Of a DNA stretch of 64,000 bases, positions 11,337 to 56,039 are shown one piece after another; within the stretch, counting starts at the first letter, position 1; every line of letters starts with the position of its first letter. This stretch comes from Geosiphon pyriformis. Lineage: Eukaryota; Glomeromycota; Glomeromycetes; Archaeosporales; Geosiphonaceae. The notes below the pieces were generated by a model that saw only the letters and a program-made list of their open reading frames with translations, searched no databases and was not told the origin of the DNA. The stretch lies in assembly GCA_016748015.1 (NCBI GenBank), contig JAAOMT010000703.1:302550-366549 (forward strand), in the 5' to 3' direction. Position numbers and translations under genes: made by a program.

Positions 11337-14300
11337 TAATTTCTTCTTTAAAACTAAGCTCTATTAAAGTTTAAGTATTATCTGTAACATTAAGATAATA
11401 GTCCAAAATAATTATAGTAGTTTGGTCTGAAAATTATTGAATTTCAATTCTGTAAGTTTACCAATATATTGAATTTTTATTGGTTGGAATATTGGATTTT
11501 ATAAAACATTTTCACAAATATTAAATAAGTTATAAAGTCTAAATGCTGTTCTGAGTTTATAATAAGTATTTGTAAGTTTAGCTATTGTTTTGAATTCATT
11601 GTAAATTTGTTTTTGTATAGCTTTAAAAGTAATATTTATTACTACAAGTTCTAATTTTCATTTATAAAGTGTTCTTTCAATATGAAAATATCTGTATATA
11701 AGAGTATATTTATTTTTCTGTTTATTAAAATATTACAGAAGTTTTTGTTAAATTGTGATATTTGGTAAAATGTTAATAGAGATGAATAAAAGGTTTTCTT
11801 TTAAAGCTTGTTTTAAAAGTTCTGGTAATTAATTTTCAGAATAATTTCTTGTGTTTCTTCTATAAGAATAATAATTTTGAGTATTATTTATTATTGGTAT
11901 TATAGTTTTTTTTTGGGTGTAATTAATTTGATTTTCATTAATTATTATGGATAAGTCAAAAAATGTTTTTAAAGCTAACATTAATTTCTGGAATATTTGT
12001 TAAATATTTTATGGAATAATTATAGTGAAGTAAAATAAAGTTGTAAATGAAATTTGAAAAAATTTAAAAAAGAAAATAAATTTCAAAAAAATTTGAAAAG
12101 AGAAAAATATGCAAATATTTTTGATATTGGGTTTTTATATTGGGTTTTTTGTAATTATTTACTATTTTTGTTTTATGTTTATGTATTTTAATGTTAAATT
12201 AAATGTTTAAGTTTGGTTGTTGTTTTATTATAACTATTAGTTCTAAGTTTTAGAAAATATTTTTGGAACTAATTAAAGAGGAATGTGTATTAATTTATGC
12301 AATTAATGGTTCAGAATTGTTTCTGGAATAATAATACTTTAATTGATCTCTATATACAACTTTTGTTAAGACTTTGTTATTAAGTTTTAACTTATATAAT
12401 CTATTGTCTAGAATTTTGTAAATATAAAATGGTTTATCTTATTTATGTTCAAATTTTCTATTCTATTGTTTTTTAGTCTTAGTTTTGTGTAAAAAAACTT
12501 TGTTTCTAAATTTAAATTTGTTGGTAATTAGTAGTAATTTATTATTATGTTATTCTTTTTGTTGAGCTTGAAAGTATTTAATGTAGATGGCTGTTATTTG
12601 TTGTTTCCCTTCTAAAATACTAAAAAGAGTATAGGCTCTTTGTTAAAATGTTTTTTAAAAGTTTTCTTCATTAATTAATTATATGAAATATGTTTCTACA
12701 ATAAAATTAATTAGTAATATTGCTGTTTTTCCATAAATTAAATCAAAAAATGTGTATTTTATGGTATCTTGTTTTAGTGTTCTGTATGCTAATAATACTG
12801 ATGAAATAAAAATATCTTATTTCTGCTCAAAATCAGTTGAGACTTTAGCTAATGATTCACACAATGTTTGGTTGAAATGTTTCATTAATCTATTTGTTTA
12901 TAGATAATATGATGATAATAAGAGTCATTTAATATTGAATTGTTTACAAATTTTTGTATTAAGTTGTTTATAAAATGTATTTTTTGATTGAATAAAAATT
13001 CAATTGAACATTTATGTCTACAAATAATGTCTTCATAAATGAAATTTGTTATTGATTTTGCACTTGTTCTTTAAATAGCTCTGACTTTAGACCATTTGGT
13101 AAAGTAGTTTACAGCAATTATAATATAATAATTTCTTTGAGTGGTAATAAGTAGTGGTTTAACTAAATTGATTTCTATTCTGTCAAATAGTTGTTCAACT
13201 TTGATTGAATTTAAAAGTTCAATGGATCAAATTTTTTTTTAACAATTATTATATGATTTTATATACTGTTGAATGTTTTGGTATATATAAGACCAAAAAT
13301 AATGTTTTAATGTCTTTTATACTGTTTTTTTCTAAGTGTTCTAATAAAGAATCTGTATACATATTATATAAGATTGTTTTTATTTTATTTTATTAGACTA
13401 ATCTGAATAAATTTGTTAAATTTTGGTGGTTTTTATAATAAATTTTGTTATAATACAGAAAGTATTATTTGAATTAGTATTATAATTAGTGTTTTTTAGC
13501 TGAAAACCAATTTTCTGGTATTTTGAAAGTTTTTAAATAGTTTTTAATATTGTTGTAGTTTTTGGAATTTATTGTTTTATTTATTAATTGTTGTTGGATT
13601 GGTAATTTGTTTAATTCTAATCTTGTCTTATCTTAAAAAAACTATCTATATTTATATATAATTTGTCTAGTTTGTGATAAACAATATATTTGTAGTTTGC
13701 TAAAAAATTAAACCATCAAGATTGTTTGGTACTAAGTTCAGAGTTTTTTTTGTTAAGCTATTTATAACTAATATTATTTATGATGATATCAAATTTTGGT
13801 CTATTTTGGAAGTATTGTTGAAAATGTTTCAAAGCCCAAATAATAGTTGCTGTTTTTAATTCAGTAAACCTATATTTGAGTTTAATTGGTTTAAGAGTTT
13901 TACTGGCATAAGTAATTACTTATTTATTGCCATTGTTATTCAATTATGATAGAATGGCACTAAAAGTTATATGTGAAGCATTGGTGGTTAACTGAAACCT
14001 TTTACTAAAATCTGGATAAGCAAAAATTGGAACTGTAATAAGTTTTTTTTTAAAGATGTTAAATATTTATTGTTAAATTTGTGTCTATTAATATTTCACA
14101 TCTTTGTTAGTCAAATAGTTGAGTGGTTTAGTAATTTCAAAAAATTTTTTAATAAACTTTTAATAATAAGAAATTAATCTTATGAATTCTTTTAATTCTG
14201 TAGTATTTTGGGAAACTTAAAAATTTTTAACAATACTAATTGTTCTTGGATTAAATTGGACTCCATTTTTGCTGACAATATGTTCAAGAAAGATTAAACT

Positions 14301-14448
14301 TGTTTTTCCAAAATAACACTTTTCAATGTTTAATTTTAATCCTGCTTTTTGTAATTGTCAAAAAAATTTTTGTAGATAGATTAAATAGACTTTAAAACTT
14401 GAGAAGTATATATTAGTGTTATTTAAGTAAACAACTATTAATTGCCAT
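11337..14448 (-). pseudogene. Element O pol, 3' half: RT end, RNase H, integrase, extension
   Basis: Minus-strand fragments align with element A: RT around YLDD (here YLNN) just below 14448, RNase H at ~13.4-13.9 kb, the integrase core at ~12.7-13.2 kb, and the integrase end near 12345, where O reads RDQLKYY and A has a stop at the Q position. 11337-12340 corresponds to the extension seen after the integrase in A, B and E, but is too decayed to read. Every domain contains stops; not functional. Confidence 0.75.
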
Positions 14449-15318
14449 TGTTACAGGTGATTATTTCTGCAGTTGAATTAAATAACAAACCTGTAACTTG
14501 GTGCTCAAAAGCTATTTCCATTGATGATGTTCTGTAAGTGTTGTATCTGAAGGTTTTGATGGATCTGAAGGTTTTGGTTGAGTTCTTTGTATAATGGACA
14601 GAGATTCAATAGTATCAATAATAGATGTATCTTTCCAAGAGTTTTCCCAATTTCTTTCTCAGCATGGTGGCCGGATTTAGTCTGGCAGTTGTGCCCTTCT
14701 GGTAAGCTATCTGATAATATATAAAATTCTATTCTTATTTCTGGGTTTTTTACCAGGCTATCCTTGACATCAATAACTCAGCACTTAATCCTTTTAATCA
14801 GTTAGTATACAACAACAAATCAAAATAAAATAAAGAAAAAGAAATAAAAGAAAAATAAAAAAAGCAAGAAATAAGCCAAGGCGATTTTGCAGATTAGTAT
14901 CTTGTCAATAGCCGTGATCAAGAGCTATTGTTCCAGTGTGGTTAAGTATCAATTACTATTAACATAAAGTGTTAATAGTGGAGAGTGGGTTGAGATATGG
15001 AATAATTATTTATTTGATGATTGTGTTTTCTAGGCTAAGGATTCTGTGGTATTGATTCTGTCTTTTCTGTTTCTAATACTACTGCTATATATACATAATT
15101 GAGATTCTTCAATTCCTCGATTCTTCACAACAGAAATTCTGGAATTCCTGGAATCCTGCAATTCCTTTGAGAGGAATTCTGGAATCCTGGAATCCTGTAA
15201 TTCCTCATCGAGAATCCTGAAATTCCTGAGAGGAATCCTGGAATTCCACATTTACTATGCTTACTTCTGATTGGCTAATAATTATGCTAATATATTTTCT
15301 ATATTTCTATAAGTAACA
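14449..15318 (-). repeat. Element A 3' LTR
   Basis: 870 bases, TGTTAC...GTAACA at its ends (short inverted repeat). Nearly identical to 23743-24629 but 17 bases shorter, at least partly because its GGAATTCC-type array (about 15122-15246) has fewer units. It contains TATATATA at 15085-15094 and CCAAT at 15270-15274 on the minus strand. Confidence 0.93.
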
Positions 15319-15334
15319 TTATTCTCTCCTTTTT
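15319..15334 (-). other. Element A polypurine tract
   Basis: Minus-strand AAAAAGGAGAGAATAA directly adjoins the 3' LTR, the normal site for plus-strand DNA priming. Equivalent tracts abut the 3' LTRs of B (32614-32629), E (53896-53911) and C (44831-44844). Confidence 0.85.
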
Positions 15335-16157
15335 AATATTGAGCTCCGTCAAAATCTAACTCATGTAATTCCTCTTCTTAAAGTATTTTCTGGATTTCGT
15401 TTTCGAGAATTACTTGTGTTATTTGGGTTTGTAATTTTTCAAATTGAGCATTGGTGATTTTCCTCAGTTGATTACTGGTAACCATATCCATTGCTCTGTT
15501 GTGTAATATTTCTGGTTTATCTTGAAATGCTGTATGTATTTGGTATATGGCTCAGGCTTGTGTAAATAAGTTGTTCTTTCCCACAAAATGTTTTAATTGT
15601 TGTAGTATTCTTTTGTCAAATAATTGCTTTGTTTTATTTGTATATAGATTCTGAATATTTACGTGTTGTCCTAAGTAGATATAACAATAGTTTCGTGAGA
15701 ATTGTTGTATCCACCAATTCCAAGTTTCTTTAGTCAACTCTTGATATAGTGACTCTTTTGTCAATTTTTTTATTACTAATTTTACTTTCACCATAATTTT
15801 GTCCACGGTATTTTCAGTTTTCTTCTGTGTTCTGAGTTGAAATGTTTTTCTAGTATCTTGATATCGAATGGTTTGTTGATTAATTGTAATCTCTATTTCC
15901 TGGTGTTGGATTAATTGAAAGAGTTGTTGTGCTAGTGAGTAAATGTTGTCTGTAATTTCCATTTTTCTGATATTTTCTGTTGCGTCTATCATGTCTTTAT
16001 ATATTCTTTTGATGGATCAATTTAACATGTTGTTGTCGATAATAATGATTGGTTCTAGATCTCATGGAATCTCATCTGGTTAGACTAGTATTTTCTGTAC
16101 TCCTAATTGTGGAATATTACTGGTAGATGGTAGTGTGATGTTGTGATATGGTTTCAG
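15335..16157 (-). pseudogene. Element A post-integrase extension of Pol
   Basis: About 270 codons in the same frame as the integrase, separated from it by the TGA at 16158-16160. The longest open stretch (15552-15992, 146 residues) begins near IDATENIRKMEI and is helical, Gln/Lys/Thr-rich and basic, with the motif ETWNWW. It has no signal peptide, transmembrane segment or Cys pairs, so nothing supports an envelope protein, and no chromodomain was seen. The same segment is present at 32630-33410 and 53912-54733, so it is a conserved part of the family rather than chance coding. The function is unknown; a capsid, chromatin or integrase-targeting role would be guesswork. It ends shortly before the PPT. 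Confidence 0.65.
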
Positions 16158-17462
16158 TCAATCTTTATGTACTGCTTTGATTAAAATTTTGTTATCCAAT
16201 CTTAATTTGTAAGCTCCATTTCCTAGAATTTTTTCTATGTGAAATGGTCCGTCCCATTTGGGGTCAAATTTTCCACTCCATTGTTTTTCTGCTTTGGTAT
16301 AATGTAGTAATACTTTGTCTCTGATCTTGAATTCAACTGGTTTGTCTAATAGTTGACTATTGTGTCTTTCTTTTTGTGTTTCTTGTAACTTTTGGATATT
16401 ATCAGCTGCTCTTCTTCGTTTGTTTTCCACTGTTTCCATTAAGTCATATGTTCTTTTTAGCAATGTTTCTTGAAAATTTTCCTCTGTTATTGGTTCAGCT
16501 AGATATGTATTAATTTCTCTCTCTACTGGTAATGTTGCTATTCTCCCGTATACTAATTCAAATGGTGTTGCTTGTATAGTATCTTGTTTCATTGTCCAAT
16601 AAGCAAATAGTACTGATGGTATGAACAAATCCCAATTGTTCTGGTTTTCTTGGCTGAGCTTGGCTATTGCTTCACATAATGTTCTGTTAAATTTTTCTAC
16701 TAATCCGTTGGTTTGTGGATGGTATGGTGATGATAATGGTCTCTTGATTCCAAATCTTTGGCTCAATTCTGTTAATGTTCTGTTCACAAAATGAGTTCCT
16801 TGATCTGATAATAATTCTTTTGGACATCCATGTCGACAAATCAAATTCTGATGAATGAATTCGGCAATAGATTCTGCATCCGCTCTTTGAATTGCTTTTG
16901 CCTCTGGCCATTTAGTGAAATAGTTCATAGCTACTGCTATATATCTGTTTCCTCTGTTGGTGATTATTAATGGTCCGACTAAATCAATTCCCATATAGTC
17001 AAATGATTGTCCCATTTTGATTGGTCTTAATGGTTCACTGGGTCTTGTTCCTCCTCTTTGCTGACAAGCATCACAATTTTGAACATATTGAATGATGTCT
17101 GGGTACATTGATGGCCAATAGTATCTTTTTCTAGTTCTTTCCATGGTTGCTTCTTTGTGAAAATGTCCTGCTGTTAGATTTGAGTGCATGTTGAATAATA
17201 TTGTCTTTTTTTCTGGCTCTGTGATTACTCTGGTTGGTTGATCTGGATCTTTTCTATTTTTCCGATAAAGTATATTTTGGTAAGTAATAAAATATTTTGC
17301 TTGTTGTTTGATACTCCTTCGTTTTGTATGAAATAAATTCTCCTTGAACTGTTGAGTATTTAGATAATGTTGTAATTGTTGATATTTTTGTATGTTCATC
17401 TTTTGTTGTATTTTTCCGTTGGTATTGTTCTGGTTTTATTATATTTTTGGGTTGAAATGTTC
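16158..17462 (-). pseudogene. Element A integrase
   Basis: A 413-residue open stretch (17399-16158). The zinc-binding HHCC domain is at residues ~72-112 (H72, H79, C109, C112). The DDE core has D139 (GIDLVGP), D199 (LLSDQGTHF) and E235 (GLVEKFNRT), giving the classic D,D-35-E spacing. The C-terminal part has the KDKVLLH-like DKVLLHYTKAEK and GPFHIEKILGNGAYKL segments of Ty3-type integrases. The catalytic residues are intact. It ends at TGA 16158-16160, a stop shared by B and E at the same codon; element O has CAA there, implying an ancestral CGA. The frame continues into the extension. Confidence 0.9.
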
Positions 17463-17870
17463 TTAGATTTGTCTTATTCGCGATAAACTATCAGCATTTC
17501 CGTTGTCTTTTCCTTTCTTGTAATGTATAGTATAATTGTATGGTGTGAGTGCCATTTTCCATCTTAACTGTCTTCCATCTCCAAATTCTTGTTTTTGGAG
17601 TGATGTCAATCCCTTGTGATCTGTGTATACTTCAAACTTCTGGCTCAAGTATTCTTTCCATTTTATGACAGCCCAGTATATTGCTAAGTGTTCTTGTTCC
17701 GGTGTTCCATAGTTCTTTTTGGCTGGTGTTAAACCTCTGCTGGCATATGCTACTGGATGTTCTCTCCTGTCCAGTCCTCTCTGAGATAATACTGCTCCCA
17801 ATACTTGGCCGGATGCATCAGTGGTGATAATGAATGGTTTGCTGTAATTTGGATAGATCAGCACTAAAGC
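17463..17870 (-). pseudogene. Element A RNase H
   Basis: About 133 residues in the RT frame. It carries FIITTDASGQ (first Asp), YGTPEQEHLAI (Glu), FEVYTDHKGL (second Asp) and GKDNGNADSLSR (last Asp), the standard Ty3-type RNase H set. It is preceded by a TAA in the AAGCTCATCTAAGC segment, where relatives B and E have CAA (Gln), a C-to-T change. The catalytic residues are retained. Confidence 0.88.
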
Positions 17871-18902
17871 TTAGATGAGCTTTTTCCTCAGAATATCAAA
17901 AGCTTCTTGTTGACTTTCTATCCATTCATATTTTGCATTTTTGTTTTGTAGTTGATTGAGTGGCTGTACTATCTTGGAAAAGTTCTTGATAAAACGACGA
18001 TAGTAGCTGGCAAATCCCAAGAATGATTTCAGTTCTGTTATATTGGTCGGTACTGAAAAGTTCTTTACTATCTCTATTTTCACTGGATCCGTTTTGATGC
18101 TGTCTTTGCTGACTATGTGTCTCAAGAATTTGAGTTCCATCTTGCCAAAAAAGTACTTTGTCACATTTAGCTTTAGTTCTGCTCTTCTTAGTCTTTTGAA
18201 CACTTATTGAAGATGATGAAGATGATCATCAAATGTCTTTGAGAATACATTGGTGTCATCTAAGTATACAACTACTGATTTCTACAATAAGCCCATATAA
18301 ACAATTTCTATTAGCTGTTGGAAAGTCACTGGGGCATTGGTTAAGCCGAATGGCATTACTTCAAATTCGAAATTCCCTTCTCTAGTAGTAAATGCTGTTT
18401 TCTCTTTGTCAGCTAGATTCATGGCTACTTGCCAGTAACCACTGTCCAAATCTAATGTAGAGAACCATTTGTTTCTACCGAAAGCATCGAATAATTCTTG
18501 TATTTGTGGAGTTGGATAACTGTCTCCACAAGTTATACTATTGAGTTTCCTGTAGTCTACACAAAACTAGATTTTTCCATTTTTCTTATGAACAAGTACC
18601 ACTGGTAACGACCATGGACTCATTGATGGTTGAATTAGCCCATTGTCAAGCATTCTGTTTATCTCTTGATGAATAATCTTGTGGCTGGCTGGTGGCACTC
18701 TGTATGCTCTTTGTTTGATTGGCATTGCATCTCCAGTTTTAATCTGATGCTGGATGATATCAGTTCGGCCAAACTCATTTTTGCTGGCAAAGATGTTATT
18801 GAAATTGTTGAGTAACATCTTGAGCTGCATACATTGGAGTGGATCTAAGTTTCCCATGTTCATTTGTTTCAATTGTTCTGGTTGGAGCAAATAATATTCG
18901 TC
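17871..18902 (-). pseudogene. Element A reverse transcriptase
   Basis: Ty3-type RT in the same frame as dUTPase and integrase. Visible blocks: LLQPEQLKQMNMGNLDP linker, MLDNGLIQPSMSPW, VDYRKLN, LDLDSGYWQVAM, the MPFGLTNAP block and the catalytic YLDD near 18258-18269, then LKFLRHIVSK and FLGFASYYRRFI. Three in-frame stops interrupt it: TAG before FCVDY (E has CAA there), TAG at 18282-18284 just before the YLDD strand (E TAG, B TGA, O TGG at the same codon), and TAA before VFKRLR. There is no frameshift. Confidence 0.88.
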
Positions 18903-20930
18903 TCATCCATAGATTGTTTGTGATGTGATATCAACATATCCACAAAGTTGTGGAAAGTCTGGAATGGAATTTGATGGTTGGTCCTCTACTTCTGTGGTTA
19001 AATATCTGATGGTGGTTCCTTCTGGTATGCTGATGACATTGCCAGTATTGTTGTAGATGGAAATTTTTATGCTGCTATAGCTTTTGGCTGGTATGTGGAG
19101 ATTGATCAACCCAATCTCTCTCAATTCACAAAGAGTTGCTTCCATTTCAAACATCTGTTTTTGCTCCTTTTCTTTTCTTTCTATTGCTAACATGTACTGG
19201 CTATATGATGGAATAAAAATAGCTTGACCAGTTGAGATAATTTCTCCTTGGCCAACAATTTCTTCCTCTGCCATGTTAACTGGTACATCTATTCTACCTG
19301 TGGATCCGAATCCTTGTATTCCTCTCGCTGTTATTTCTAATTCCTCCCTCTTTCCCACTAATACTAACTGAGTTATTCTAACCAGAGGCAGGAATATTGC
19401 CTGTGCTATTTTTTTATTGGGCTCTATTACATAGGCTTTTTCTGAGTCATTTTGTAGCATAACGATAATATTTCCTACATATTCCGTGTCAATTATTCCT
19501 CCTCTTATATTAATCCCTCTTTTCGCTAAACTACTCTTAGATGCTAGTTGAACCATGGTTGTTGCTGGAATTTCTAGTGCTATTTTCAGATCAATGCAGA
19601 TGCATGAATGTGATTCCAATTTGATGGCATTTTTTCCTGGATATCTCAGATTAAACCCTGCATCAGTATCATGTGCATGTTCTGGCATAATACCTTCCCT
19701 ATTATTACTATACCATTTCAACTTTTGTTCCTTAGAGAGATCTGGTAGTGCAATGTATTGTTCATAGTTTACATCGGAGTTTGTATCTGAGTTGGAATCA
19801 TTGTCATTGTCATTGCCTTTTTGAATAGAGCTTGAACCATTGTTGTCATCATCATTGTCGGAGTTTGAATCACGATTGATCGGTAATTGTAATTCTGATG
19901 TGCAGCTGCTAATTGGTTCTTCCTTTTCTGGGATCGTGTAGATCATGCGTGGTGGTAGATTGTAAATGAGGTCACACTCATTGCAATACTGGAAGTCATA
20001 GGAAATTAGGCAGTATTGACATAGTCGAGCATTCAACTGCTCTAACCATTGTTCTTGTTCTTTCTTTGTGGGTGCTAATTCTTGATAGTGTTCGTGGAAT
20101 TGTTCTGGGTCCAGGAGGTTTATGATGGGTTCGGCATCCCAGTCAAGCTCTAAAGGTTCCGAGGGGTTGTCTTTGATTGTTTTTATCTCTTTTGGCATCG
20201 CTTTTTCGATTTTTGCAAGTGCCATTTGCCAAATTTTGTCGTCGTCATGTGAGCAATTGTCCAGTTGCTGTACTGCTCTTCTCCAGGCTGTTTTTATTGG
20301 GGTTCTTTTCCTTACCCAGTCACTTATTAGAATTGTGTATTGACACAATACATCGCACGTTCCTCCATGTCCAGGAATGTCATGCCACATTCCTTCATCC
20401 AAGAGAGTCTCTCCACAAGCTAAGCATGGCTGATTGTCCCATTTCTTTACTCGTTTTAGTCTTCCAAAGCATTCAAGGATGCATGGGTGGCAATAAAACC
20501 TAGTTGCCATTGAATATTCCTCATCGTTCCCACAGCATGCACCCATTGATGACAATTTCTTGCCACAATCAATGCATATAAGCTTGGGTTGACAGTAGGT
20601 AGATTGTTGGAGTGTAGTGTAGGTGTTATAAGCGGTATTGGTTTGAGTGGTCTCTTTTTTTTTTCCCTTTCCTTTATTTTTGTTGTCTTCTTCTCATTCC
20701 CAACTTGAAGTCAGTTTGCTCTCGTCATTGTCGGTCCATGTCAGATCATCGGTTTCCCAGGTAAGTTCTTCCTTTTGTTTCCCTTTTTCCTTGTTGTTGT
20801 CATCTCAGAAGAGTATTGGCGGCAGCTCGTTGTGCTCTTCATCAGCCCATAATACTTGGTAGGCTTCCCAGGTAGGTTTTTTTTTCTCCTCCTCCAGCTT
20901 GATCAATAGTTTCTCTCTTGGAGGAGTTTT
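18903..20930 (-). pseudogene. Element A zinc module plus dUTPase
   Basis: An open stretch of 550 residues (20555-18903), preceded by an acidic/lysine linker with two TGAs. Zinc module I (including upstream CIDCG): C7, C8, C22, C25, C44, C47, C67, C71. A helical WRR segment follows, then module II: C179/C182 and C191/C194. A Ser/Asp/Asn-rich spacer (~220-262) leads to a complete trimeric-type dUTPase: motif 1 DTDAGFNL (298-303), motif 2 ASKSSLAKRG (338-347), motif 3 GGIIDTEYVG with D356 and Y359, motif 4 NKKIAQAIFLP (380-390), motif 5 RGIQGFGSTG (411-420). dUTPase hydrolyses dUTP and limits uracil in reverse transcripts. The residues look functional. The stretch ends at TGA 18903-18905, shared by B and E. 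Confidence 0.9.
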
Positions 20931-21450
20931 GAATGGCCACATGTGGCTGGGACATGTATGTGTTGGCCCTGATACATTAGCTGGAGTTCCTGGGTGTTCC
21001 AGTCTAACGTTGCATTGGCTTTGAATAGCCAGTCATTATCAACAAGAGCTTGGTATTGAGTGGCTTCTATTACTAGAACTTTAATGGGAGTCATGATGCC
21101 ATTGACTTCAAACAGGAAATCATCGATTTTACTGATTGGAGTTTTGGTTGCTCCATCGGCTGTGATGATTCTGGCACTGGCAGCTCGATCAACTCGGTGA
21201 CCTAATTGATTCATGAGTTGTCTAATGATTATACTGCCAGCTGATCCACTATCTAGGATGAGTTTGATGGGGTGACCATCAACTCTGGCATCCGTGTACA
21301 TGGCTGTTATGGGTTTCTCTTCGAGGGCGGCTCCACTGAATAATGGTATTGTTGTGTTTTCTTCAAGTTCGAAAGGAAAGATGACTGCTAGGGATTCATT
21401 GCTAAAGATGGTTGCCAGTGGAATGGTGTTGGTAGGTACGTGCTAATTGG
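20931..21450 (-). pseudogene. Element A aspartic protease
   Basis: Retropepsin-like domain in the gag frame. The catalytic DSG is in LILDSGSAGSIIIRQL, followed by a TAD-containing segment, hydrophobic strands and LVDNDWL. Compared with element E, a T is missing in the CATTCAAAAC segment near 20930, which throws the downstream zinc/dUTPase region out of frame in this copy only; in E the same junction reads straight through. This indicates that gag-protease and the rest were one ORF. Confidence 0.85.
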
Positions 21451-23680
21451 ATTCTGTGTTGTTGGAGGTGGTGTTTTCTGAGATAACTAGGAGACTTAAA
21501 TAATGTTGAGAATTTGGGTTTTGGATGCGACTGGTATCCAAATTCCGGGTGCGTGATCCTGATGGTGAGTTTAGTGAACTGGGGATTGGTTGGTGAACAA
21601 CCATCGCTGATCTCTAGTTTTGAGTGACTCTGGATTGAGGGTTGTCTGATGTCATTTGAGCTGGGTTCTGGGTTGGTGTTTGAATTGGTTGGGGTTGATA
21701 GATAATTTGTGGCTGTGGTTGATATATTACTTGTGGCTGTGGCTGATGAATTGGAGGTTGATATACTGGCAGGTGATAGATTGGTTGCTGGGTCATGGGC
21801 AGGTAATTATTTCGATATTGGTCTTGATTCTGATTTGGATAATGATTTGGAGTTTGGAACTGGCAATCGGGGTTTCGATATTGATTTTCTGATCATTGGT
21901 TATTTAGACGCTGGTGACAGTCAATTTGGATATGTTCTTGTTTCCCACAATAGTGGCAGATACGCATTTCCTGTTGCCACTGTTAATTGGTTGATGAAGA
22001 TAGACATGGTTGATTTTGGCCATGATTAGAGTTTCCTTGATTATTGTGTCATTGTGGAGGCTGATAAATGGTGTGATTGTCAGCTAAGTATTCTTCCAAT
22101 CTCTTATTAATTGATTCACTGAACTTCTCCAATTTGGAATCCAATTCAGATGATCCGTTCATAACTAGATTAACGGCTTGGGCATAGTTAGCCTCTGACT
22201 CGGTGGACTCAAAATCTCTGGCGCATGTGACTGCGTCTTGAAGCGTGCCAGAATGCAATAGACATACATGTTACAAGATGCTGCTGCGCAGGCCACAGAT
22301 AAACTGATTGAGTATCTGTGGTGCTGTGAAATAATTGGCGTCAATTGCTTGAATTTGGCATAGGTTTCGATGGAAGTGTCCCAGGTAAGTGGTGACTGCT
22401 TCAGTTTCTTCTTGTTTTATGGTGGTAAATGCATTAACTAGGCGATTGATGCTATTATTGTTGCTGAAGTATCTCAGAAATTCTGCTTTGAAGGCATTAA
22501 AATCTTGTGGTTTATTAATCAAGCTCTGGTACCATGAATTGGCAGTATCTTTGAGAAAGTAAGGAATGGTTTGCATTGCTCGTGCGTCATTCTATCTATT
22601 GGCTGCGATGGCTTTTTCTACATCATTCAGCCATATTTGAGCGTCATCCTCTTCGCCAGTAAAGTTGTTGAGTTTTGCGATTGGTGTGTAGGCCATTAGA
22701 TCTAAGTTAGGTAGTTGTGGTGGCTGTTGAAGCAGTTGTTGTTGTCCTGGCTGTTGGGATGGTAGCTGAAGTGGCTGTTGTATGAATTCGGCTATAGGAT
22801 TAATCAGTGGTTGATTGATGATGATTACTGAAAATAAGTTTTGCTAATTGATTAATTCGGGTTCTTGATTTCTTTGATTTGGTGGCGTTTGAATATTTGG
22901 AGTTTCAATTTCCGGATTTTCTAACTGTTGCTGAGTTTGAAAGTTCGGGGTTTCAACTTCCGGGTTTTCAGTGATCGGGTGCTGGTAAGTGAATTCTTGA
23001 TCCTCTGATTCTTCTTCCTCCTTTTCTGATTCTGCTGTTTCCCACAGATCAGAGATTCAGAAATCTGGTAAAGGCGGTAGTGATCAAAGTCCTAATGGGG
23101 TTGATGATCGCGAATTAAATCCCTCAAAGTACTTGCCGTATGGTTCTAACAATTCTGTTTTCCTTTGTCTATTTTGGAATGGAAATCGTCCAAATGCTGA
23201 TGTCGTAGTTGATGTAAACGCGTCTGTTGATGATATGTTGATGGCACTTCCAGGTGTATAGTGGTAGGATGGGTTGCTTGGAGATTCAACTCTGTTTTTT
23301 TTCCAAGCAGATGGCTGTATCTTTCTGGGTGTTACTGCTGGTGTTTGTAATTTTCTCTTGCTTTTACTAGTGTATGTAGTTGGATATCTTTGTTGAGTGT
23401 GATGTTCAATTTCTTTGTTGATCTCAGTGATAATGGATGCAAAATTATGATTTGTTGGCAGGTTGGTATTTTGAATTAATTCCCTATAGAAAGTTTCTCT
23501 TGCTGATTCAGTATTCACTGGTGTTCCTAATAAAGAAGAAATCTTTTCATTAACATAGAAATTGAAGGCTGATTCGGCAGATATATGATTGTGGTTTAAT
23601 CTCAAGTATTGACAATAGTGTTGAAATAAGGATTTTGTGAATCCTAAATGGTTTGCTCCTATAGTTTCTGATTCTGCCAC
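21451..23680 (-). pseudogene. Element A gag
   Basis: The frame opens after the leader TGA and reads from GTG at 23680 (VAESET), with no ATG through the first ~198 codons. The N-terminal domain (23680-23087) is followed by a repeated ENPEVETPN/ENPEIETPN stretch near 22.9 kb, then a retrotransposon-gag domain (22576-22271: DTANSWYQSL, FLRYFSNNNSINRL, YLGHFHRNLCQIQA). A CCHC knuckle CHYCGKQEHIQIDC lies near 21.95 kb, then a Gln/Tyr/Pro repeat region (21796-21614). Stops include TGA at 23084-23086 (CGA in E, CAA in B) and TAA at about 22271 (CAA in B and E). All pieces stay in one frame. Confidence 0.85.
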
Positions 23681-23723
23681 TTTTGGTTTGGTGTTGTCAG
23701 TGCTGGTTCTCTGTAGGATTATA

Positions 23724-23740
23724 CCTCACAGGGAGCACCA
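23724..23740 (-). other. Element A primer-binding site
   Basis: Minus-strand TGGTGCTCCCTGTGAGG begins two bases inside the LTR end. It starts TGG, as expected for pairing with a tRNA CCA end. The tRNA was not identified. Equivalent sites: B 40951-40967, E 62245-62261, C 43656-43672, D 51681-51697. Confidence 0.75.
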
Positions 23741-23800
23741 AATGTTACAGGTGATTATTTCTGCGGTTAAATTAAATAACAAACCTGTAACTTGGTGCTC
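23733..23800 (-). promoter_or_regulatory. U5-PBS inverted repeat (predicted hairpin)
   Basis: GAGCACCA(AA)TGTTACAGGT at 23733-23752 (plus strand, PBS and LTR end) and ACCTGTAACTTGGTGCTC at 23783-23800 are complementary over 18 bases apart from a two-base bulge, with a 30-base loop. The PBS is thus complementary to the element's own LTR. It recurs in the other copies. Confidence 0.7.
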
Positions 23801-24378
23801 AAAAACTATTTCTGTTGATGATATTCTGTAAGTGTTGTATCTGAAGGTTTTGATGGGTCTGAAGGTTTTGGTTGAGTTCTTTGTATAATGGACAGAAATT
23901 TAATAGTATCAATAATAGATGTATCTTTCCAAGAGTTTTCTCAATTTTTTTCTCAGTGTAGTGGCCGGATTTAGTCTGGCAGTTGTGCCCTTCTGGTAAG
24001 CTATCCGATAATATATAAAATTCTACTCTTATTTCTGGGTCTTTTACCAGGCTATCCTTGATGTTAATAACTCAGTGCTTAATCCTTTTAATCAGTTAGT
24101 ATACAACAACAAATCAACATAAAATAAAATAAAAAAAATAAAAGAAAAATAAAAAAAGCAAGAAATAAGCCAAGACGATTTTGCAGATTAGTATTCTGTC
24201 AATAGCCATGATCAAGAGCTATTGTTCTAGCATGGTTAAGTATCAATTACTATCAACATGAAGTATTGATAGTGGAGAGTGGATTGAGATATGGAATAAT
24301 TATTTATTTGATGATTGTGTTTTCTAGGCTAAGGATTCTGTGGTATCAATTCTGTCTTTTCTGTTTCTAACACTACTG

Positions 24379-24585
24379 CTATATATACATAATTGAGATT
24401 CCTCAATTCCTCGATTCTTCACAACAGGAATCCTGGAATTTCTGGAATCCTACGATTCTTTTGAGAGGAATCCTGGAATCCTGAAATCCTGCAATTCCTT
24501 GTCAGGAATCCTGAAATTCCTGGAATCCTGCAATTCCTGAGAGGAATCCTGGAATTCCATATTTACTATGCTTACTTCTGATTGG
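24379..24585 (-). promoter_or_regulatory. Candidate LTR promoter of element A
   Basis: On the minus strand a CCAAT box (24581-24585, in TAGCCAATCAGAAG) precedes the GGAATTCC array, which precedes a TATA box (24379-24388, GTATATATAG). The same order is kept in all the LTRs of the family in this window. Transcription start is not determined. Confidence 0.6.
24425..24558. repeat. GGAATTCC / GGAATCCTG array in LTR
   Basis: Imperfect tandem array of words such as GGAATCCTGGAATTCC and CTGCAATTCCT, rich in short palindromes. The number of units differs between LTRs of one element (15122-15246 versus this copy) and between elements. Confidence 0.75.
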
Positions 24586-24633
24586 CTAATAATTATGCTA
24601 ATATATTTTCTATATTTCTATGAGTAACACCAT

Positions 24634-27600
24634 AAAAGTCTTTTATAAACAACATTCATAAGTTTTTGAAATATTGCTGGTGCATTACAAAGTTCAAAAA
24701 GCATTATTTTAAACTTATAATTTTCTTTTTGAATAATAAATGCTGTTTTGGAATGGTCTTTGAGATCTATTTTAATTTGTCAGTATTTGCTTTCTAAGTC
24801 TAAAGTTGAAAAAAACTTGGCTTTTTTCAGAGCATTTAGCATGTTGTAGTGGGTAGGTATTTCTAATTGTGATATTATTCAGTTGTTAGTAGTTTACACA
24901 AAATTGGATTTTGCCATTTTTTTTTCATAAAGACCACTGATAAGGCCCAAAAACTTTTTGATAATTGGATAAAATGATTATTAAGCATTTATTTAACTTT
25001 TTTTCTAATAAATTGGTGGCTAGCAAGTAGAACTTGGTAGACTTATTAACATTTTGGTGAAAAATTCTCTGTATAGATCTAATGCTGTATAATATTAGTT
25101 TTTTCAAAATTTTTATTATTTTTGGTAAATATATTGGCATATTTAATAATTAACTGTTTTAATTGTCTTTGTTGTTGGGATTTTAAGAGACCTATGTTGA
25201 TTTAAGAGAGTTTTTTTTTTAAAACATGGTAGTTTTTAGTAGTGAAAGTAATGTTTAAGTTTGAAAATAGGATATGTCTTGCAATTCCAATAAAATTAAT
25301 AACAATCTGAAGAATTTCATTTTGAAAGATATTGCTATATATGATTTTAATTTCTAATTTATTTAATAAAATAATGAAATAGTTGTTGGAGTTGTAGAAT
25401 GTAACTTAAAATTTTTTTATTCTTTTTGGAACATAAACATTTAAAATTAAAATTTTATGTTTTAAACAGATTTGTTTATTTAACTCAAAGATTTTTTGGG
25501 TGGTAATAGGCTTTGAACAAGTGTAGATTTCATGATGTTTTCCAAAAAGTGAAATGATAATTGGTTGAGGAAGTTAAAGAATCTGGTAAAATTTATTCTG
25601 TATATTGAAAGCTATATTTATTGAAACTGTAAATTGTTTTGTCAAACCAAAATTTTGGGTTTTTCTTTTATTTTTTCTTAATTGTTCTCTGTTGTTGACT
25701 GATTGTAAATCTGAAATGTTGATTAAAAACAGGTAAATTGTTTGAGCAATTTTTTCAGCATGTTTAATTTTGAATGTTTTGTTAATTTTGTTTTGTAACA
25801 GAATTATAATGTCTTTAGTATATTTTGTATTTATGATTTTTTCTCTAACATTAATTTTTTTGTTTGCCAATAATAATTGAAAAACAATTTGAACTATTGC
25901 TCCTAACAGAATTTCAAGAACAATTTTTAAGTTGATTTTTGTTAAAAATTTTGGTTGAAAAGCCAAAGTGTTTTTCTTTAAGTATTATAAATTATATCTG
26001 ATATTTATTTTATAAGCTTTCTTTGGTTTTATTCTTTGTTCATTGTTGTTAAAATATTGGAGTTATATAACTGGCTGATTTTTAGTAAAATAGATTGGGA
26101 TTATTGCAATTTTTTTTTTGGTTCAGATTTTCCAAATTTGATTTTATTTTCATTAAACAAGAAAATGTTAATTACATAACATTTTGGACACCATTGGTCA
26201 TCACAAAACATAGTACATTTTTTATATAGTTGAATGTCTATTTGCTTTAATTATTAAATTTAAGCTTTTTTAATTGAGTAAACATAACTTGTAATTTGAT
26301 AATAGGCTTCTACTTTATCTTTATAATCAAATTCAGCTAATTTTATTGTATATTTAATGTATTCTGCTTCTTTCATTTAATATACATCTTCTTGGATTTC
26401 TCTATTAATTAAAATTATGACCAATTTATAGATTATTTTAATATCATGTAAGTAATAATAGAGTTTATTGAGAACATTGTTATATGCTGCATCAAAAAAG
26501 ATTTTTCTTTTCATTTTCTCTCTAATTGAAAGTACATATTAACAGATTTGATTACAAACTTCTTCTCTTATTACAATATCAATCTAGTTATATTCTTTTG
26601 GTAGCATTTTTTTATATGTAAGACAAGAAATATTGTTTTATTTTTTACTTTATTTAAGGTATTTGAATTATTCTTAATGACATGCTTTGCAAAAATAGCA
26701 GATATGTGTTTTATATTTTTCTTTTGGGAATATGTATACTTCTATTAACAAAAGCTTCTTGTTGTAGTTTCTATATTTAAGTGGAATATAAGATAGTTGT
26801 TTTTGTGATTTTGATATAGAATATTAAACAACATTTTATTCTTTGGTTCTTCAAAGATTTTTTGTTCTGTTTTTTTAACCTAAAAGCCATATATGTTTTA
26901 GTAATTGGCATTTTTTTTTCCTCTTTAAATTTAAACACCAGAGCTTTTTTGAATTGTTTGTTAAATATATTACATATAGCAAATACTTAGATATATTGTT
27001 CTTGATATAAAATTTTTAATTCTTGTGTTTTTTAGTTTAAGTTTGTATTGAATTTAAAGAGCCAATTATTTTCGACAAGAGCTAGTATTGGGATGTATTC
27101 ATAACAAAAACTTTAATTGAAATAGTGATTCTGTCAATTGTAAAAAAAAAATTGTCAATTTTTTTTACTGAAATTTTTTTCATATTATTTACAATGACAA
27201 TAATTGTTTAAACAGATCTGTCAACAGTTCATTGAAGCTGTTGTATTAATTAATAAATAATGATGTTTTTGGTAAATCTATTGTTTAAGATTAATTGAAT
27301 TGGTTTTTTTTAATTTCAGCTTCTATATATATTGCTGTAATTGCTTTTTGCTTATTAACTGCTGTATTATTAAGTAGAGAGAGTAATTTATTGGCTTCAA
27401 ATTTAAATGAAAATATATTTGAAAGGTTGGCATTTTGGGCAATTCTGGCTGGTGAAATTGTATTACTAGAAGGGTTTTGTCTTGATACTACAGCTTTACT
27501 TTTAAAAAATGCAATTTGTTGAAAATCCGATTTTTCTGACATTGTGAAGTAACTGGGTTGAGTATAATAATAAATAGATTTTTGTTGAGCTAGATTTTGG

Positions 27601-29410
27601 GGAATTAATTAGTTGTTAGAATTAAATCAATTATTGTTTAAAAACCGATTTTGTGGTGTAAATTGGTTTTATTGAATCAATCCTTGAGTTGATATTTGGT
27701 ATTGTTGTGTAGATAGTAATTGATATTGTTAAACCTGTGGAGATTGCTAATATTACTGTGTTATTGGTTGTAGAGCAGATTAATAATAGTTGTTTTAGTG
27801 TTGAAGTCTTGGTAAATAATAAGCTGGTAGTGGTAATTGGTAATGCAATTGCTGAGATTAAAAATAATGTTGATTATTTTTTTGTTGTTGGTATTATTGC
27901 ATTTTTCAGCAATCTTATTTCCAATGTTTAGAAATTTCACAATAGTGATAGCTTTAAGATTGGTTGTTTGGTAATAATGTGTAATTATTTTGATTATATT
28001 ATTAAGATGGTTAATATCTTTGTTGTTGCTATTGTTGTTGGTTGGTAAAGTAATTCTCAACTTTTTTGGTCAATTGATCAATCTTTTTTTCAGCTGTTAA
28101 GCTGGTTTCTTTAATTGCAAAATTTATGAGTTTGGTACAGTTAGCTTTTTTTATTGCTATTTTATAGGTTTTAGCATGTTGAATAACAGCAGCTAAATTT
28201 TTTGGAGCATATGGTTAAACTTTTTTAATGCATTTGTTTTTTAATTCTGCTATAAACTAATCCAATATTTAAATATTGGAGTAGTAATTATTGGTTTTTA
28301 ATTGTCAAATTTGTTGGAAAAGTTTGTTGAATCTCCCAATATAAGTTATAGTAGTTTCAGATGATTTTTGTTGATATTGTAAAAGTAATTTCAGAGAGTA
28401 ATAAAAATGTTATTGTTAGTAAATTGTTCCAGAAAAGCATTTTTGAATGCTTACTAGTTTTTAAAAGATTTGGCCAAGTTTTCAAACCATTTTTTTGCTG
28501 TTTTTTGAAGAAAATATAAAATTGTTTTAATATTTTTGTTGTATTCTATCCATTCATATTTTCTGTTTTCTGGACTTTGTTGAATCACTCTTGTAAACTA
28601 GTGTCAATATTTTTTCTTATGGATTCAGTAATTTTTGCAATATAAGTGGTTGTCATGTTTTCTGTATCTTTGTTTTTAGTGGGTTTTTTTTCTGTAAATT
28701 CAGAAATGTCTTCATTGTTATCAGAGTAATTACTTTGGTTTTCTGCTAGGAAATCAAAAAGATTGGTACTAATAAAAATTTGTTTAGGCTGTTGTGTTGG
28801 GCTTTTTGGTAATATAAAATCTTTTGGTTTTTAGAAACAATTGAGTAGTAAATTTGGTGTTTGAACTTGAGCAAGTAAAGCTAAAAAAAGTGTGATTGAA
28901 AATGATAATTTAGAACTAGTTTTTTGTTTTGGTGTCTGCAGATATTAAAAGATTGTTTTTGATGTATTAAGTATTGTGTGAATTGGTTGTATATTCTTCT
29001 GTTTGTTTTTACTGCTTGTTTTGGGTTCAAACTCAAGTTCAAGAATAAATTATGAATTAGTAGAATACTTTTTTTTACAAAACATGATAATATTATAATC
29101 AAATTCTTTAAAATAAGTAGTATAACTCTTAACACTAATGTTTTTGGATCTCTATTTGAGTAGTAAATAATATTTTCAAAAAGATTTTGCTTGACTTCTG
29201 TAATATTGTAGCCTCTAAAAAAGTATTTATTGATTTGATTTTTGATATATTGGAAAAGTGTTTTCTTAAAAACTGTAATTTCATCTCAAATTTTAAATTA
29301 TTGTTTGTAATAAGTATAAATTAACTAATAGTACTCTAGAGTTGTTATATTTAATATGATCATCACTTTGAAGTTATTATTGCTGTTTATTTTTGTGGAA
29401 AAACACCAAA
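24634..29410 (-). pseudogene. Element O 5' half: gag, protease, zinc module, dUTPase, RT start
   Basis: Minus-strand decayed coding sequence aligned with element A. Gag N-terminal domain about 28.9-29.3 kb, gag core about 28.3-28.5 kb, protease about 27.1-27.5 kb (its DSG is not legible), cysteine-poor remnants of the zinc module at 26.1-26.9 kb, dUTPase at 25574-25966 (NTKYTKDIIILLQN for motif 3 and HAEKIAQTIYLF for motif 4), and RT start at 24640-25140. It is cut at 24634 by the insertion of A and resumes at 14448. Numerous stops; not functional. Confidence 0.75.
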
Positions 29411-31763: not shown

Positions 31764-32613
31764 TGTTACAGATGATTATTTGGGGTTTTAAAGCAAATAA
31801 CAAATCCGTAACTTGGTGCTCAATTGATAGATAGATGTTAATATCTGAAAGTTTGATTGTTCTGAAGGTTTTGGTGTTGAGTTCTTTGTATAATGGACAG
31901 AGATTTAATAGTTGTTTTTAGTAGTCTCTCAGAATCGCAATTCTGTCAAATTTTTTTCTCAGCATGGTGACTGGTAATCCTCCTGGTAAGCTATCCTCAA
32001 ATTTATGAGTGTTTTACCTTTGTTTTATAGGTCTTTTACCAGTCTTTATGATGTCTGTAACTCAGTGGTTTAATTCTTAATCAATTAGTTAACCAAAAAA
32101 GAAATACAAAAGAAATAAAAAAATTTAAACAAAAGCAATTACAAGTTAGTATTCCGTTAATAGCCATAATCAAGAGCTATTGTTTTAGTATAGTTAAGTA
32201 TCAATTACTATCAACATGAAGTGTTAATAGTGGAGAGTGGATTGAAATAGTGAATAATTATTTATTAATATTTGTGAAATAGAAGATTGCTTAGATCAGA
32301 TCTAAACTGGAAGGTTTTTAACTAAAGAATTCTGTCTTTTTTACTTCTAGCACTACTACTATATATACATAATTAAGATTTCTTAATTCCTTAATTCTTC
32401 ACACCAGGAACCCTGGAATTCCTGGAATCCTGCAATTTTTTTTGAGAGAAATTCTGGAATTCTGAAATCTTGCAATTCCTTGTATAAGAATCCTAAAATT
32501 TCTGGAATCCTGCAATTCCTCTTGAGAAGAATCTTGGAATTCCATATTTACTACAACTATTTCTAATTGGCTAATTTATATGCTAATATACTTTTTATAT
32601 TTTATGAGTAATA
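31764..32613 (-). repeat. Element B 3' LTR
   Basis: 850 bases, begins TGTTACAGATGATTATTTGG, ends GAGTAATA. The PPT adjoins at 32614-32629. Confidence 0.9.
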
Positions 32614-32629
32614 TTATTCTCTCCTTTTT

Positions 32630-33410
32630 AATATTAAGCTCTGTCAAGATCTCCCAAATCTTCTAACTCTAATTTTCTGTCTTTGAGTATTTCTTGAACT
32701 TTTTTTTCAAGAATTATTTGAGTTATTCTGTTCTGTAATTTTTCAAATTGAATGTTGGTTATTTTTCCCATTTGGTTAACTGTAATAGAGTCCATTTTCG
32801 GATTTAGTAAGATTTCCAGTTTGTCTTAAAATCCCATATGTAGCTTATAGATGGCTCTTGCTTGTGTAGTCAAATTGTTCTTTCCCATAAATTGTTCTAG
32901 TTGTTGCAGTATTGTTGTGTCGAATAATCATTTTGTTTTATTCATGTATAAGTTTTGAATGTTCAAGTGTCATCCCAAGTAGAAGTAACAAAAGTTTCTT
33001 GGAAATTTGTGTATCCATCATTTCCAAGTTTCTTTGATCAACTCTTGATATATAATGCCACTTGTTGGTTCTTCTATTGCTAATTTTATTTTCAGAATTA
33101 TTTTGTTAATAGTGTTTTCTGTTTTTCTTTGACTTTTGTATTTGGGTATCTTTTTGGTATTCCAGTATCAAATGATTTGTTGATTGATAGTAATTTCTAT
33201 ATTTTGTTGTTGAATTAGTTGGAAGAATTGTTGTGCTAGTGAGTGGATATTGTCAGTGATTTTTATTTTTCTGAAGTCTTTTGTTATGTCTACCATGTCT
33301 TTATATACTCTTTTTATTGTTCAATTTTATGTGTTTGGTTCAATAATTATAATTGGTTCTAGATCTTGTGAAATCTCATCTGGTTGGACTATATGGTGAT
33401 ATGATTTCAG
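32630..33410 (-). pseudogene. Element B post-integrase extension
   Basis: Aligns with 15335-16157 and 53912-54733 in position and content, but with several stops. It follows the conserved TGA at 33411-33413. No membrane or zinc motif. Confidence 0.55.
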
Positions 33411-34670
33411 TCAATTACCATATGCTGTTTTGGCTAAGATTTTGTTGTCCTATCTTAATTTATAAGCTCTATTTCCAAGAATTTCTTCTATGTAAAATGG
33501 TCCATCCCATTTGGAGTCAAATTTTCCACTCCATTGTTTTTTCGCTTTAGTACAATGTAAAAATACTTTGTCTCTAATTTTGAATTCAACTGGTTTATCT
33601 AATAATTGGTTATTATGTCTTTTTTTTTGTTTCTCTTGTGACTTTTGGATGTTATCAGCTGCTTTTTGCTGTTTGTTTTTTAATGTCTCCATTAAGTTAT
33701 ATGTTTTTCTTAACAATGTTTTTTGGAAATTCTTTTCTGTTATTGGTTCTGTTAGATATGTTTTGACTTCTATCTCAACTAGTAATGTTGTTGTTCTATC
33801 ATATACTAATTTAAATGGTATTGCTTGTGTAGTGGCTTGTTTCATTATTCAATATGCAAATAATACTAATAGTATGATTAAATCTCATTTGTTTTGGTTT
33901 TTTTGGCTGATTTTGGCTATTGCTTTATACAGTGTTCTGTTGAACCTTTTGACTAACTCATTTGTTTGTGGATGGTATAGTGATAATAATGGTCTTTTTA
34001 TTCCAAATCTTTGGCTTAATTCTGCTAATGTTCTATTCACAAAGTGAGTTTCTTGATCAGATAATAATTTTTTTGGACATCTGTGTTAACAGATTAGATC
34101 TTGATAAATGAATTTGACAACGGATTCTGTATCTGCTCTTTGAATGGCTTTTGCTTCTGGCCATTTAATAAGATAGTCCATGGCTACTGCAATATATCTG
34201 TTGTCTCTACTGGTAATTGTTAATGGTCTGACTAAGTTAATTCCAATGTGATCAAATGGTTGTTCCACTTTGATTGGTCTTAATGGTTCACTGGATTTTG
34301 TTTCTCTTCTTCTTTGACAAGCATCACAATTTTGAACATATTGGATGATGTCTGAATATATTAATAGCCAATAGTATCTTTTTTTAGTTCTTTCTATGGT
34401 TGCTTTTTTATGGAATGTCCTGCTATTAGATCTGAGTGCATATTGAACAATATTGTCTCTTTCTTTGGTTTGTAATTACTTTTGTTGACTGGTCTGGATT
34501 TCTTTTGTATTTCTGGTACAGTATATTTTGATGACTAATAAAATATTTTGATTGTTGTTTTATGTTGTTTTGTTCTTTTTGAGATAATTTTTCCTTGAAC
34601 AATTGGTTATTTATATAATATTGGAGTTGTTGATATTTTTGTATATTCATTTTTTGTTATATTTTTGGGT
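33411..34670 (-). pseudogene. Element B integrase
   Basis: Fragments match the A integrase: N-terminal NIQKYQQLQYYI (34650), then a frameshift after ITNQRK that removes the HHCC frame, then the core with HIGINLVRPL (first Asp changed to Asn), and the C-terminal KIRDKVFLHCTKAKKQW segment. It ends at TGA 33411-33413. Inactive. Confidence 0.8.
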
Positions 34671-37860: not shown

Positions 37861-38021
37861 TGATATTGGTTCTTCCGTCTCTTTTTTTTTTTCTTTTGTA
37901 TTTTCCTCCTACTCTTAATTTATTAACTCTTCCTGGTTGGTGTTGGTTCTCCAGACTTGGTCTGAATTCCAGGTAGGTTCTTCTTTTCTCTTTTCTTTTC
38001 CCTTGTTGTCTTATGAAAGTA

Positions 38022-40907: not shown

Positions 40908-40969
40908 TTTTGGATGATTGCTGTTGGTGCTGGTTCTCTGTAAGATTATACCTCACAGAGAGCACCAAA

Positions 40970-53895: not shown

Positions 53896-53911
53896 TTATT
53901 CCTTCCTTTTA

Positions 53912-55975: not shown

Positions 55976-56039
55976 CTTTTGTTATATTTTTCGTTGATAT
56001 TGTTCTGGTTTTGTTATATTTTTGTGTTAAAATGTTCTT

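What the first reader, a model, noticed from the sequence alone, without database searches (positions are those of the whole stretch)
14449..24629. Ty3-like family with a zinc module and dUTPase between protease and RT, apparently in one giant ORF
In element A everything from the linker (~20930) to the extension (~15340) lies in one frame, and gag-protease is out of step only by one lost base, which element E does not share. Five dUTPase motifs are readable. dUTPase is known in non-primate lentiviruses (after RT), betaretroviruses (before protease) and, as I recall, some basidiomycete Metaviridae. The order protease - two-part Cys module - dUTPase - RT, plus an extension after integrase, looks unusual. 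Four independent copies (O, A, B, E) share it.
Basis: partly seen in the sequence, partly recalled or inferred. Interest (0 to 1): 0.75.

Follow-up and report, generated by a model that had tools for sequence, protein, structure and literature searches.

The report
Fungal retrotransposon with separately coded integrase
A very abundant jumping element in the fungus Geosiphon carries a zinc-type module and a DNA-building-block-cleaning enzyme inside its copying machinery, and, unlike its textbook relatives, its reading frame ends before the integrase, which seems to be made as a separate protein.

Summary
The element is real: 14449-24629, LTRs, 4-bp target duplication, nested in an older relative. 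Protein hits name the genome Geosiphon pyriformis. Order confirmed: gag-PR-[Cys module]-dUTPase-[unassigned domain]-RT-RNase H, then integrase and an extension. Gag to RNase H share one frame in most chains; A's gag/PR shift is private. dUTPase between PR and RT is already in print (basidiomycete PosPlaTy3-5; rotifer Juno/Vesta/TelKA); the two-part Cys module before it is not in the passages I read. "One giant ORF" fails at integrase: the RNase H frame ends at TAA in 13 of 13 copies examined (two subfamilies; TAG in a third), followed after 29-63 nt by integrase's ATG (12 of 13), in either frame. Of 120 listed RT-RNase H relatives, 72 show no integrase by BLAST and 52 of these end at RNase H; a quick tree puts Geosiphon and a Rhizophagus clarus protein in a 65-row group (support 99), 64 rows without integrase in the frame. 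Best reading: a Ty3-like group with pol cut after RNase H and integrase started separately; reinitiation is inferred. The dUTPase is 32-40% identical to cellular enzymes and 43-68% to those of other elements.

The parts
23743..24629 (-). 5' LTR of element A (887 bp, TG..CA)
14449..15318 (-). 3' LTR of element A (870 bp)
24630..24633 (-). target-site duplication ATGG, 5' side
14445..14448 (-). target-site duplication ATGG, 3' side
23724..23740 (-). presumed primer-binding site, two bases after the 5' LTR; 14 bases of its complement occur 413 times in the genome; tRNA not identified
23087..23725 (-). gag N-terminal region, no Pfam family over cut-off
22274..22591 (-). gag capsid (PF03732)
21917..21958 (-). 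CCHC zinc knuckle at the end of gag
20906..21442 (-). aspartic protease (PF13650)
19839..20606 (-). two-part Cys module: CxxC..CxxC..CxxC..CxxxC plus helices, then LCxxC..CxxC
   Evidence: no significant Pfam or fold match; PDB profile search showed only dUTPases
19296..19700 (-). dUTPase (PF00692), five motifs
18906..19295 (-). conserved domain between dUTPase and RT, unassigned
17874..18902 (-). reverse transcriptase, cut by stops in A
17466..17870 (-). RNase H (PF17917)
17463..17465 (-). conserved TAA ending the RNase H frame
17400..17462 (-). 63-nt A-rich spacer without ATG or GT
16017..17399 (-). integrase from its ATG (17399) to the stop at 16017-16019; H2C2, rve, weak SH3; broken in A by earlier stops (open frame ends 16158)
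15552..16016 (-). extension, possible third ORF (ATG at 15992), no Pfam family; in B and L041 the frame runs on towards the polypurine tract
15319..15334 (-). polypurine tract
53047..63133 (-). element B, same layout, flanks ACAA; dUTPase 57871-58272
31764..41828 (-). element E, same layout, more diverged LTRs; dUTPase 36517-36915
24633..28537 (-). element O, 5' half (gag, PR, dUTPase, RT1-2), interrupted by A
12346..14363 (-). element O, 3' half (RT3, RNase H, integrase)

Best explanation
A is a decayed copy of a Ty3/gypsy-type LTR retrotransposon of Geosiphon pyriformis. Its first protein is a long polyprotein gag-CCHC-PR-Cys module-dUTPase-unassigned domain-RT-RNase H in one frame (shown). 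That frame ends at a conserved stop just after RNase H, and integrase is a second coding unit whose own ATG lies 29-63 nt downstream (stop, spacer and ATG shown). The spacer carries no ATG in 11 of 13 copies and integrase's frame relative to RNase H varies, so integrase is most likely started afresh by ribosomes that resume scanning after the stop (inferred). Proteins from other sources that end at the same place indicate that the cut after RNase H belongs to a wider group, not to this copy. The dUTPase keeps its motifs and shows constraint, so it most likely hydrolysed dUTP during cDNA synthesis and kept uracil out of the cDNA (inferred). The Cys module, additional to the usual gag knuckle, probably binds zinc and serves nucleic-acid binding or Pol assembly (guess).
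For: Domains and order. One frame gag to RNase H: gagN-gagCA 8 of 8, gagCA-PR 8 of 9, PR-Cys 46 of 52, Cys1-Cys2 51 of 52, Cys2-dUTPase 50 of 53, dUTPase-next 43 of 44, next-RT 39 of 40, RT1-RT2 45 of 46, RT2-RT3 16 of 17, RT3-RNase H 13 of 13; N-free native open frames of 1433 aa (gag N-terminus to the domain after dUTPase, L041) and 1307 aa (PR to RNase H, L042). Cut after RNase H: TAA 13 of 13, TAG in O; integrase ATG 12 of 13 (ATA in L041); spacers 63 (8), 62 (2), 30 (1), 29 (2); no ATG in the spacer of 11 of 13; A at -3 of the start site in 13 of 13. Wider group: 72 of 120 listed relatives show no integrase by BLAST and 52 of these end -4 to +18 residues from the RNase H end, among them a Rhizophagus clarus protein; quick tree, 65 rows on one side of a branch with support 99: 53 cut, 11 with a tail, 1 fused on a very long branch. 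dUTPase: loose motif patterns; median dN/dS between subfamilies 0.18, against 0.20 for RT1, 0.13 for PR, 0.25 for Cys1.
Against: No RNA or protein data. Frame and junction evidence comes from decayed copies. I saw integrase behind the stop only in Geosiphon, not on the contigs of the relatives. Between subfamilies dS is about 2, so those dN/dS values are rough; within subfamily 1 the dUTPase value is 0.45, above RT1 (0.30), PR (0.26) and Cys1 (0.23). In B, L083, subfamily 2 and O integrase is in the -1 frame with an open overlap, which a frameshift could use. Two of 13 spacers carry an ATG, apparently by a C-to-T change. Two of the 72 relatives without a BLAST integrase hit (P0197, P0279) carry an integrase zinc-binding domain by precomputed Pfam; neither is among the 52.
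Confidence: 0.66

Rival explanations
1. Integrase is reached by a programmed -1 frameshift in the overlap at the end of RNase H.
For: In B, L083, L041, L042 and O integrase lies in the -1 frame, and in all 14 copies looked at that frame is open for 15-33 nt before the RNase H stop.
Against: In A, E and seven further copies (63 or 30 nt) a -1 shift does not lead into integrase. No XXXYYYZ heptamer lies in the overlap in 13 of 13 copies; those at -48/-51 in some copies, and TTTTTTT at -21 in O, lie upstream of the overlap.
Confidence: 0.12
2. An intron or a spliced subgenomic RNA joins upstream sequence to integrase.
For: It would explain why the frame across the spacer is free to vary. The host dUTPase gene is itself spread over several frames as if by introns.
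Against: No GT between the end of the LSR codons and the integrase start in 13 of 13 copies; the only AGs in that stretch in E, L041 and L042 lie before the RNase H stop. A donor further upstream (gag or leader) was not tested.
Confidence: 0.2
3. Decay only: master copies have one gag-pol-integrase frame and the stops are C-to-T damage.
For: C-to-T damage is extreme here (247 transitions, 7 transversions between LTR pairs) and explains other recurrent stops (CGA to TGA after dUTPase in subfamily 3). TAA is one step from CAA.
Against: At LTR CpA sites the fraction changed is 0.17, so 13 of 13 by chance is very unlikely; no CAA is seen at this place in the 13; 52 relatives from other sources end at the same place.
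Confidence: 0.04
4. The dUTPase is a structural, inactive part of Pol rather than an enzyme.
For: Only sequence supports activity; no usable model (pLDDT 52.1); dN/dS within subfamily 1 is 0.45.
Against: The five motifs and the motif-3 Asp are kept in most sequences, and dN/dS between subfamilies is 0.18.
Confidence: 0.15

Closest known systems
PosPlaTy3-5 and other dUTPase-bearing Ty3/gypsy elements of fungi (PMC2864245, passages read; Phanerochaete and Tuber elements cited there)
   Same: dUTPase between PR and RT in a fungal Ty3-type element
   Different: the passages read mention CCHC and HHCC motifs and an additional ORF but no two-part Cys module and no integrase in a separate coding unit; no chromodomain is found here
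Bdelloid rotifer Juno, Vesta and TelKA (PMC5408684, passages read)
   Same: PR-dUTPase-RT; Juno has an extra zinc knuckle
   Different: Juno's knuckle follows dUTPase, the module here precedes it and is larger; the passages read name gag and pol as ORF1 and ORF2 and list integrase among the pol domains
Unnamed metagenome and Rhizophagus clarus RT-RNase H proteins (P0247, P0232, P0248, P0278 and others)
   Same: listed RT-RNase H relatives; the frame ends at RNase H; five carry dUTPase before RT; P0278 also keeps the second Cys part
   Different: most listed ones lack dUTPase; the domain after dUTPase was not found in any of the 120 by BLAST
P0130, ENA contig
   Same: gag tail-PR-Cys-dUTPase-next domain-RT in one undamaged frame, 44% identical
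   Different: ends inside RT, so the integrase junction is unknown

Membership tests
Ty3/gypsy (Metaviridae) | gag, PR, RT, RNase H, integrase in this order | tested here: met
Ty3/gypsy (Metaviridae) | LTRs TG..CA, short target duplication, polypurine tract | tested here: met
   A: ATGG on both sides; B: ACAA; E: ATAG/ATGG, its LTR start decayed; PPT
Ty3/gypsy (Metaviridae) | tRNA primer site next to the 5' LTR | tested here: inconclusive
   conserved site in 413 places; no tRNA found in the 20 loci scanned
Ty3/gypsy (Metaviridae) | integrase in the same pol frame as RT-RNase H (usual, recalled) | tested here: not met
   conserved stop after RNase H, own ATG; relatives
chromovirus branch | chromodomain after integrase | tested here: not met
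   no chromodomain in integrase or extension of A, nor in the extension piece of L041
trimeric dUTPase | five motifs with the catalytic Asp | tested here: met
trimeric dUTPase | homotrimer and activity | not testable with these tools
   no usable model
known zinc-finger family for the Cys module | match to a Pfam or PDB family | tested here: not met
   best zf-Vps39_C E 0.13; the 60 of 74 PDB sequences shown were all dUTPases, matched by the dUTPase part; fold search best E 4.8 (model pLDDT 50.6)

The most novel reading that the evidence does not exclude
A group of Ty3-type retrotransposons, including elements of arbuscular-mycorrhizal relatives (Geosiphon, Rhizophagus clarus), has cut pol after RNase H and makes integrase as an independently initiated protein, so integrase dose is set by reinitiation rather than by polyprotein cleavage; within the same group Pol also carries nucleotide-pool cleaners (dUTPase in three tree positions, a NUDIX domain in another) and an extra zinc-type module.
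Probability: 0.5. Interest if true: 0.78.

Novelty: new variant of a known kind. Interest (0 to 1): 0.62.

Why it matters
In Ty3-type elements integrase is, as usually described (recalled), released from the same polyprotein as RT. A lineage that separates it would be a natural test of how RT and integrase must be matched in a particle, and would add a translation mechanism to this group. Repeated presence of dUTPase and NUDIX domains would make uracil and oxidised nucleotides in cDNA a testable selective pressure. The family is abundant: 3181 first-look dUTPase candidates in 125 Mb, of which the 150 scored all passed the Pfam cut-off.

Tried and rejected
Programmed readthrough after dUTPase: recurrent open frames of 188, 208 and 284 aa pointed to a stop after GSTG in subfamily 3; the DNA shows CGA, CAA or TGA there, i.e. 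CpG decay. Open frames of 1847 and 1719 aa lie in loci with N runs (L039, L040), and the 2242 aa was not checked, so none is used. The domain after dUTPase as a second dUTPase: hhalign gives no relation. The Cys module by structure: pLDDT 50.6 and 52.1; fold search finds nothing significant for it, and only dUTPases lead the list (E 0.02) for the longer model. Two viral-contig scans found no relative. A third ORF for the extension: integrase ends at TGA in 7 of 7 subfamily-1 copies and TAA in the same column of L041, but a neighbouring site (CGG in L041; TGA in five subfamily-1 copies, CAA in one) shows equally saturated decay, so this is left open. Papers: searches are search listings only; passages were read in PMC2864245, PMC11105155, PMC5408684, PMC2774666 and PMC8647823. 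No paper on a separately coded Ty3 integrase or on this family appeared in these listings; most subscription journals are not held. No RT tree with named reference clades was made for lack of reference sequences.
Full report
What it is. The window lies in a 124.7 Mb genome whose annotated proteins are named Geosiphon pyriformis. Element A runs from 14449 to 24629 on the minus strand, with LTRs of 870 and 887 bp that begin TG and end CA, a 4-bp duplication (ATGG), a presumed primer site two bases after the 5' LTR and a polypurine tract before the 3' LTR. It sits inside an older relative, O: O's RT is split, with RT3 at 14363-14037 and RT2 at 24857-24633. B (flanks ACAA) and E (ATAG/ATGG, one change) have the same layout.

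Domains. Pfam gives gag, protease, dUTPase, RT, RNase H and integrase in that order; gag has a CCHC knuckle. Between protease and dUTPase lies a Cys module: CxxC, CxxC, CxxC and CxxxC, a helical stretch, then LCxxC..CxxC. It is shared by the subfamilies and by an undamaged 1064-residue protein from an ENA contig, P0130, at 44% identity. In a search of proteins of 719-2287 residues with this module and its neighbours, 62 of 64 hits were Geosiphon; the others were P0130 and a lentivirus Pol matched by its dUTPase. No significant Pfam match, no PDB match outside dUTPase among the 60 of 74 shown, and no usable fold was found for the module. Between dUTPase and RT lies another conserved stretch, unrelated to dUTPase by profile comparison.

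Frames. I read frames as observed, domain by domain, in 62 chains from the window and fetched loci, with five duplicate loci dropped before the count. From gag to RNase H neighbouring domains are in one frame in most chains (8 of 8, 8 of 9, 46 of 52, 51 of 52, 50 of 53, 43 of 44, 39 of 40, 45 of 46, 16 of 17, 13 of 13); over the whole protease-dUTPase stretch it is 40 of 51. The six PR-Cys misses are A, B, E, O, L011 and L013; A, B and E carry different indels there.

The cut after RNase H. RNase H to integrase was in frame in only 2 of 5 chains. The junction shows why: the RNase H frame ends at TAA in 13 of 13 copies (A, B, E, L078-L085, L041, L042) and TAG in O; 63, 62, 30 or 29 bases later comes integrase's ATG (12 of 13; ATA in L041). 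L078-L085 were picked from 65 copies by length class. By coordinates alone the Cys-to-integrase offset in those 65 copies is 0 in 33, 1 in 13 and 2 in 19; this mixes indels from the whole stretch. With 63 or 30 bases a -1 shift does not reach integrase and readthrough would meet further stops; with 62 or 29 readthrough is out of frame. No slippery heptamer lies in the overlap in 13 of 13, and no GT lies between the LSR codons and the integrase start in 13 of 13. A separate start fits every copy; reinitiation after a short A-rich spacer is the simplest route and is inferred.

Beyond this genome. A search with L042's RT-RNase H returned 7099 proteins among the 7960 candidates scored, 120 listed. 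By BLAST 72 of the 120 show no integrase, and 52 of these end between 4 residues before and 18 after the RNase H end; two of the other 20 carry an integrase zinc-binding domain by precomputed Pfam (P0197, P0279). A cruder motif count sees the RNase H motif in 84 of 120, 46 of them ending within 25 residues, 4 at 26-100 and 34 beyond 100. In a quick tree of 97 rows (L042 and the 96 listed proteins that covered RT and RNase H; 24 dropped; midpoint root), a branch with SH-aLRT 99 sets off 65 rows: L042, Rhizophagus clarus P0247 and others, 53 in all that end within 33 residues of RNase H, 11 with a longer tail but no integrase by BLAST, and one fused row on a branch of 3.81 whose place is unsure; one further cut row (P0260) lies outside among fused ones. 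I did not see the DNA behind these proteins, so integrase behind the stop is shown only in Geosiphon.

dUTPase. Loose patterns for the five motifs match 48-51 of 51 sequences (50 copies and P0130), the motif-3 Asp is kept in 46, and 9 hold a stop. Median dN/dS between subfamilies is 0.18, close to RT1 (0.20), PR (0.13) and Cys1 (0.25), with dS near 2; within subfamily 1 it is 0.45 against 0.30, 0.26 and 0.23, which speaks for weaker constraint or more decay. The host has its own gene, 63% identical to yeast Dut1; element domains are 32-40% identical to both, 32-43% to a lentivirus one, and 43-68% to those of other subfamilies and elements (84-94% within a subfamily); element rows fall on one side of a branch with weak support (57/50). 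This argues against recent capture from this host and leaves one old capture versus several open. Five listed relatives carry dUTPase before RT, four of them with PR upstream (P0278 is a fragment without PR); two carry a NUDIX domain before PR.

Against what is known. PR-dUTPase-RT is described for PosPlaTy3-5 and for rotifer Juno, Vesta and TelKA, Juno with an extra knuckle after dUTPase. The searches named under Tried and rejected listed nothing on a Ty3-type element with separately coded integrase or on this Geosiphon family. I therefore rate it a new variant of a known kind, with the cut pol as its most surprising part.

Noticed in passing
LTR pairs of A, B, E; L001-L003, L005, L006, L008, L039, L041, L042, L067, L068: LTR pairs differ by 247 transitions and 7 transversions, C-to-T in all contexts (CpG 0.39, CpA 0.17, CpC 0.15, CpT 0.12), both strands alike in A; pairs of subfamily-2 copies sum to 9166:182. 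This looks like a RIP-like or methylation-driven process; PMC8647823 states that RIP signatures have not been detected in Gigaspora margarita or in species of the Mucoromycotina.
   Followed up: partly
L013, L015, L017, L018, L021, L030, L034, L037, L038: Nine of 29 subfamily-1 loci have 300-600 bp blocks at 68-75% identity to A between stretches mostly at 77-93%: mosaic copies, probably template switching.
   Followed up: partly
P0249, P0265 (metagenome proteins): A NUDIX domain (E 6e-14 and 7e-13) lies before the protease of Ty3-type Pol proteins in the same group.
   Followed up: no
P0234, P0240, P0251, P0254, P0257, P0263, P0277, P0286, P0287: A supported subgroup of nine rows has a tail of 73-393 residues after RNase H without an integrase hit; no Pfam family in the tails of the four scanned; Cys-containing in P0286.
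   Followed up: partly
L074 (G000:C262:402677): Cellular dUTPase gene of the host, spread over several frames as if by introns.
   Followed up: yes
window 11000-14440, 24633-30000, 46000-48000: 19-23% GC with CpG observed/expected 0.03-0.06; the first two hold the strongly decayed element O.
   Followed up: no
L075, L077: A further subfamily with the second Cys part and dUTPase, apparently distinct from subfamilies 1-3.
   Followed up: no
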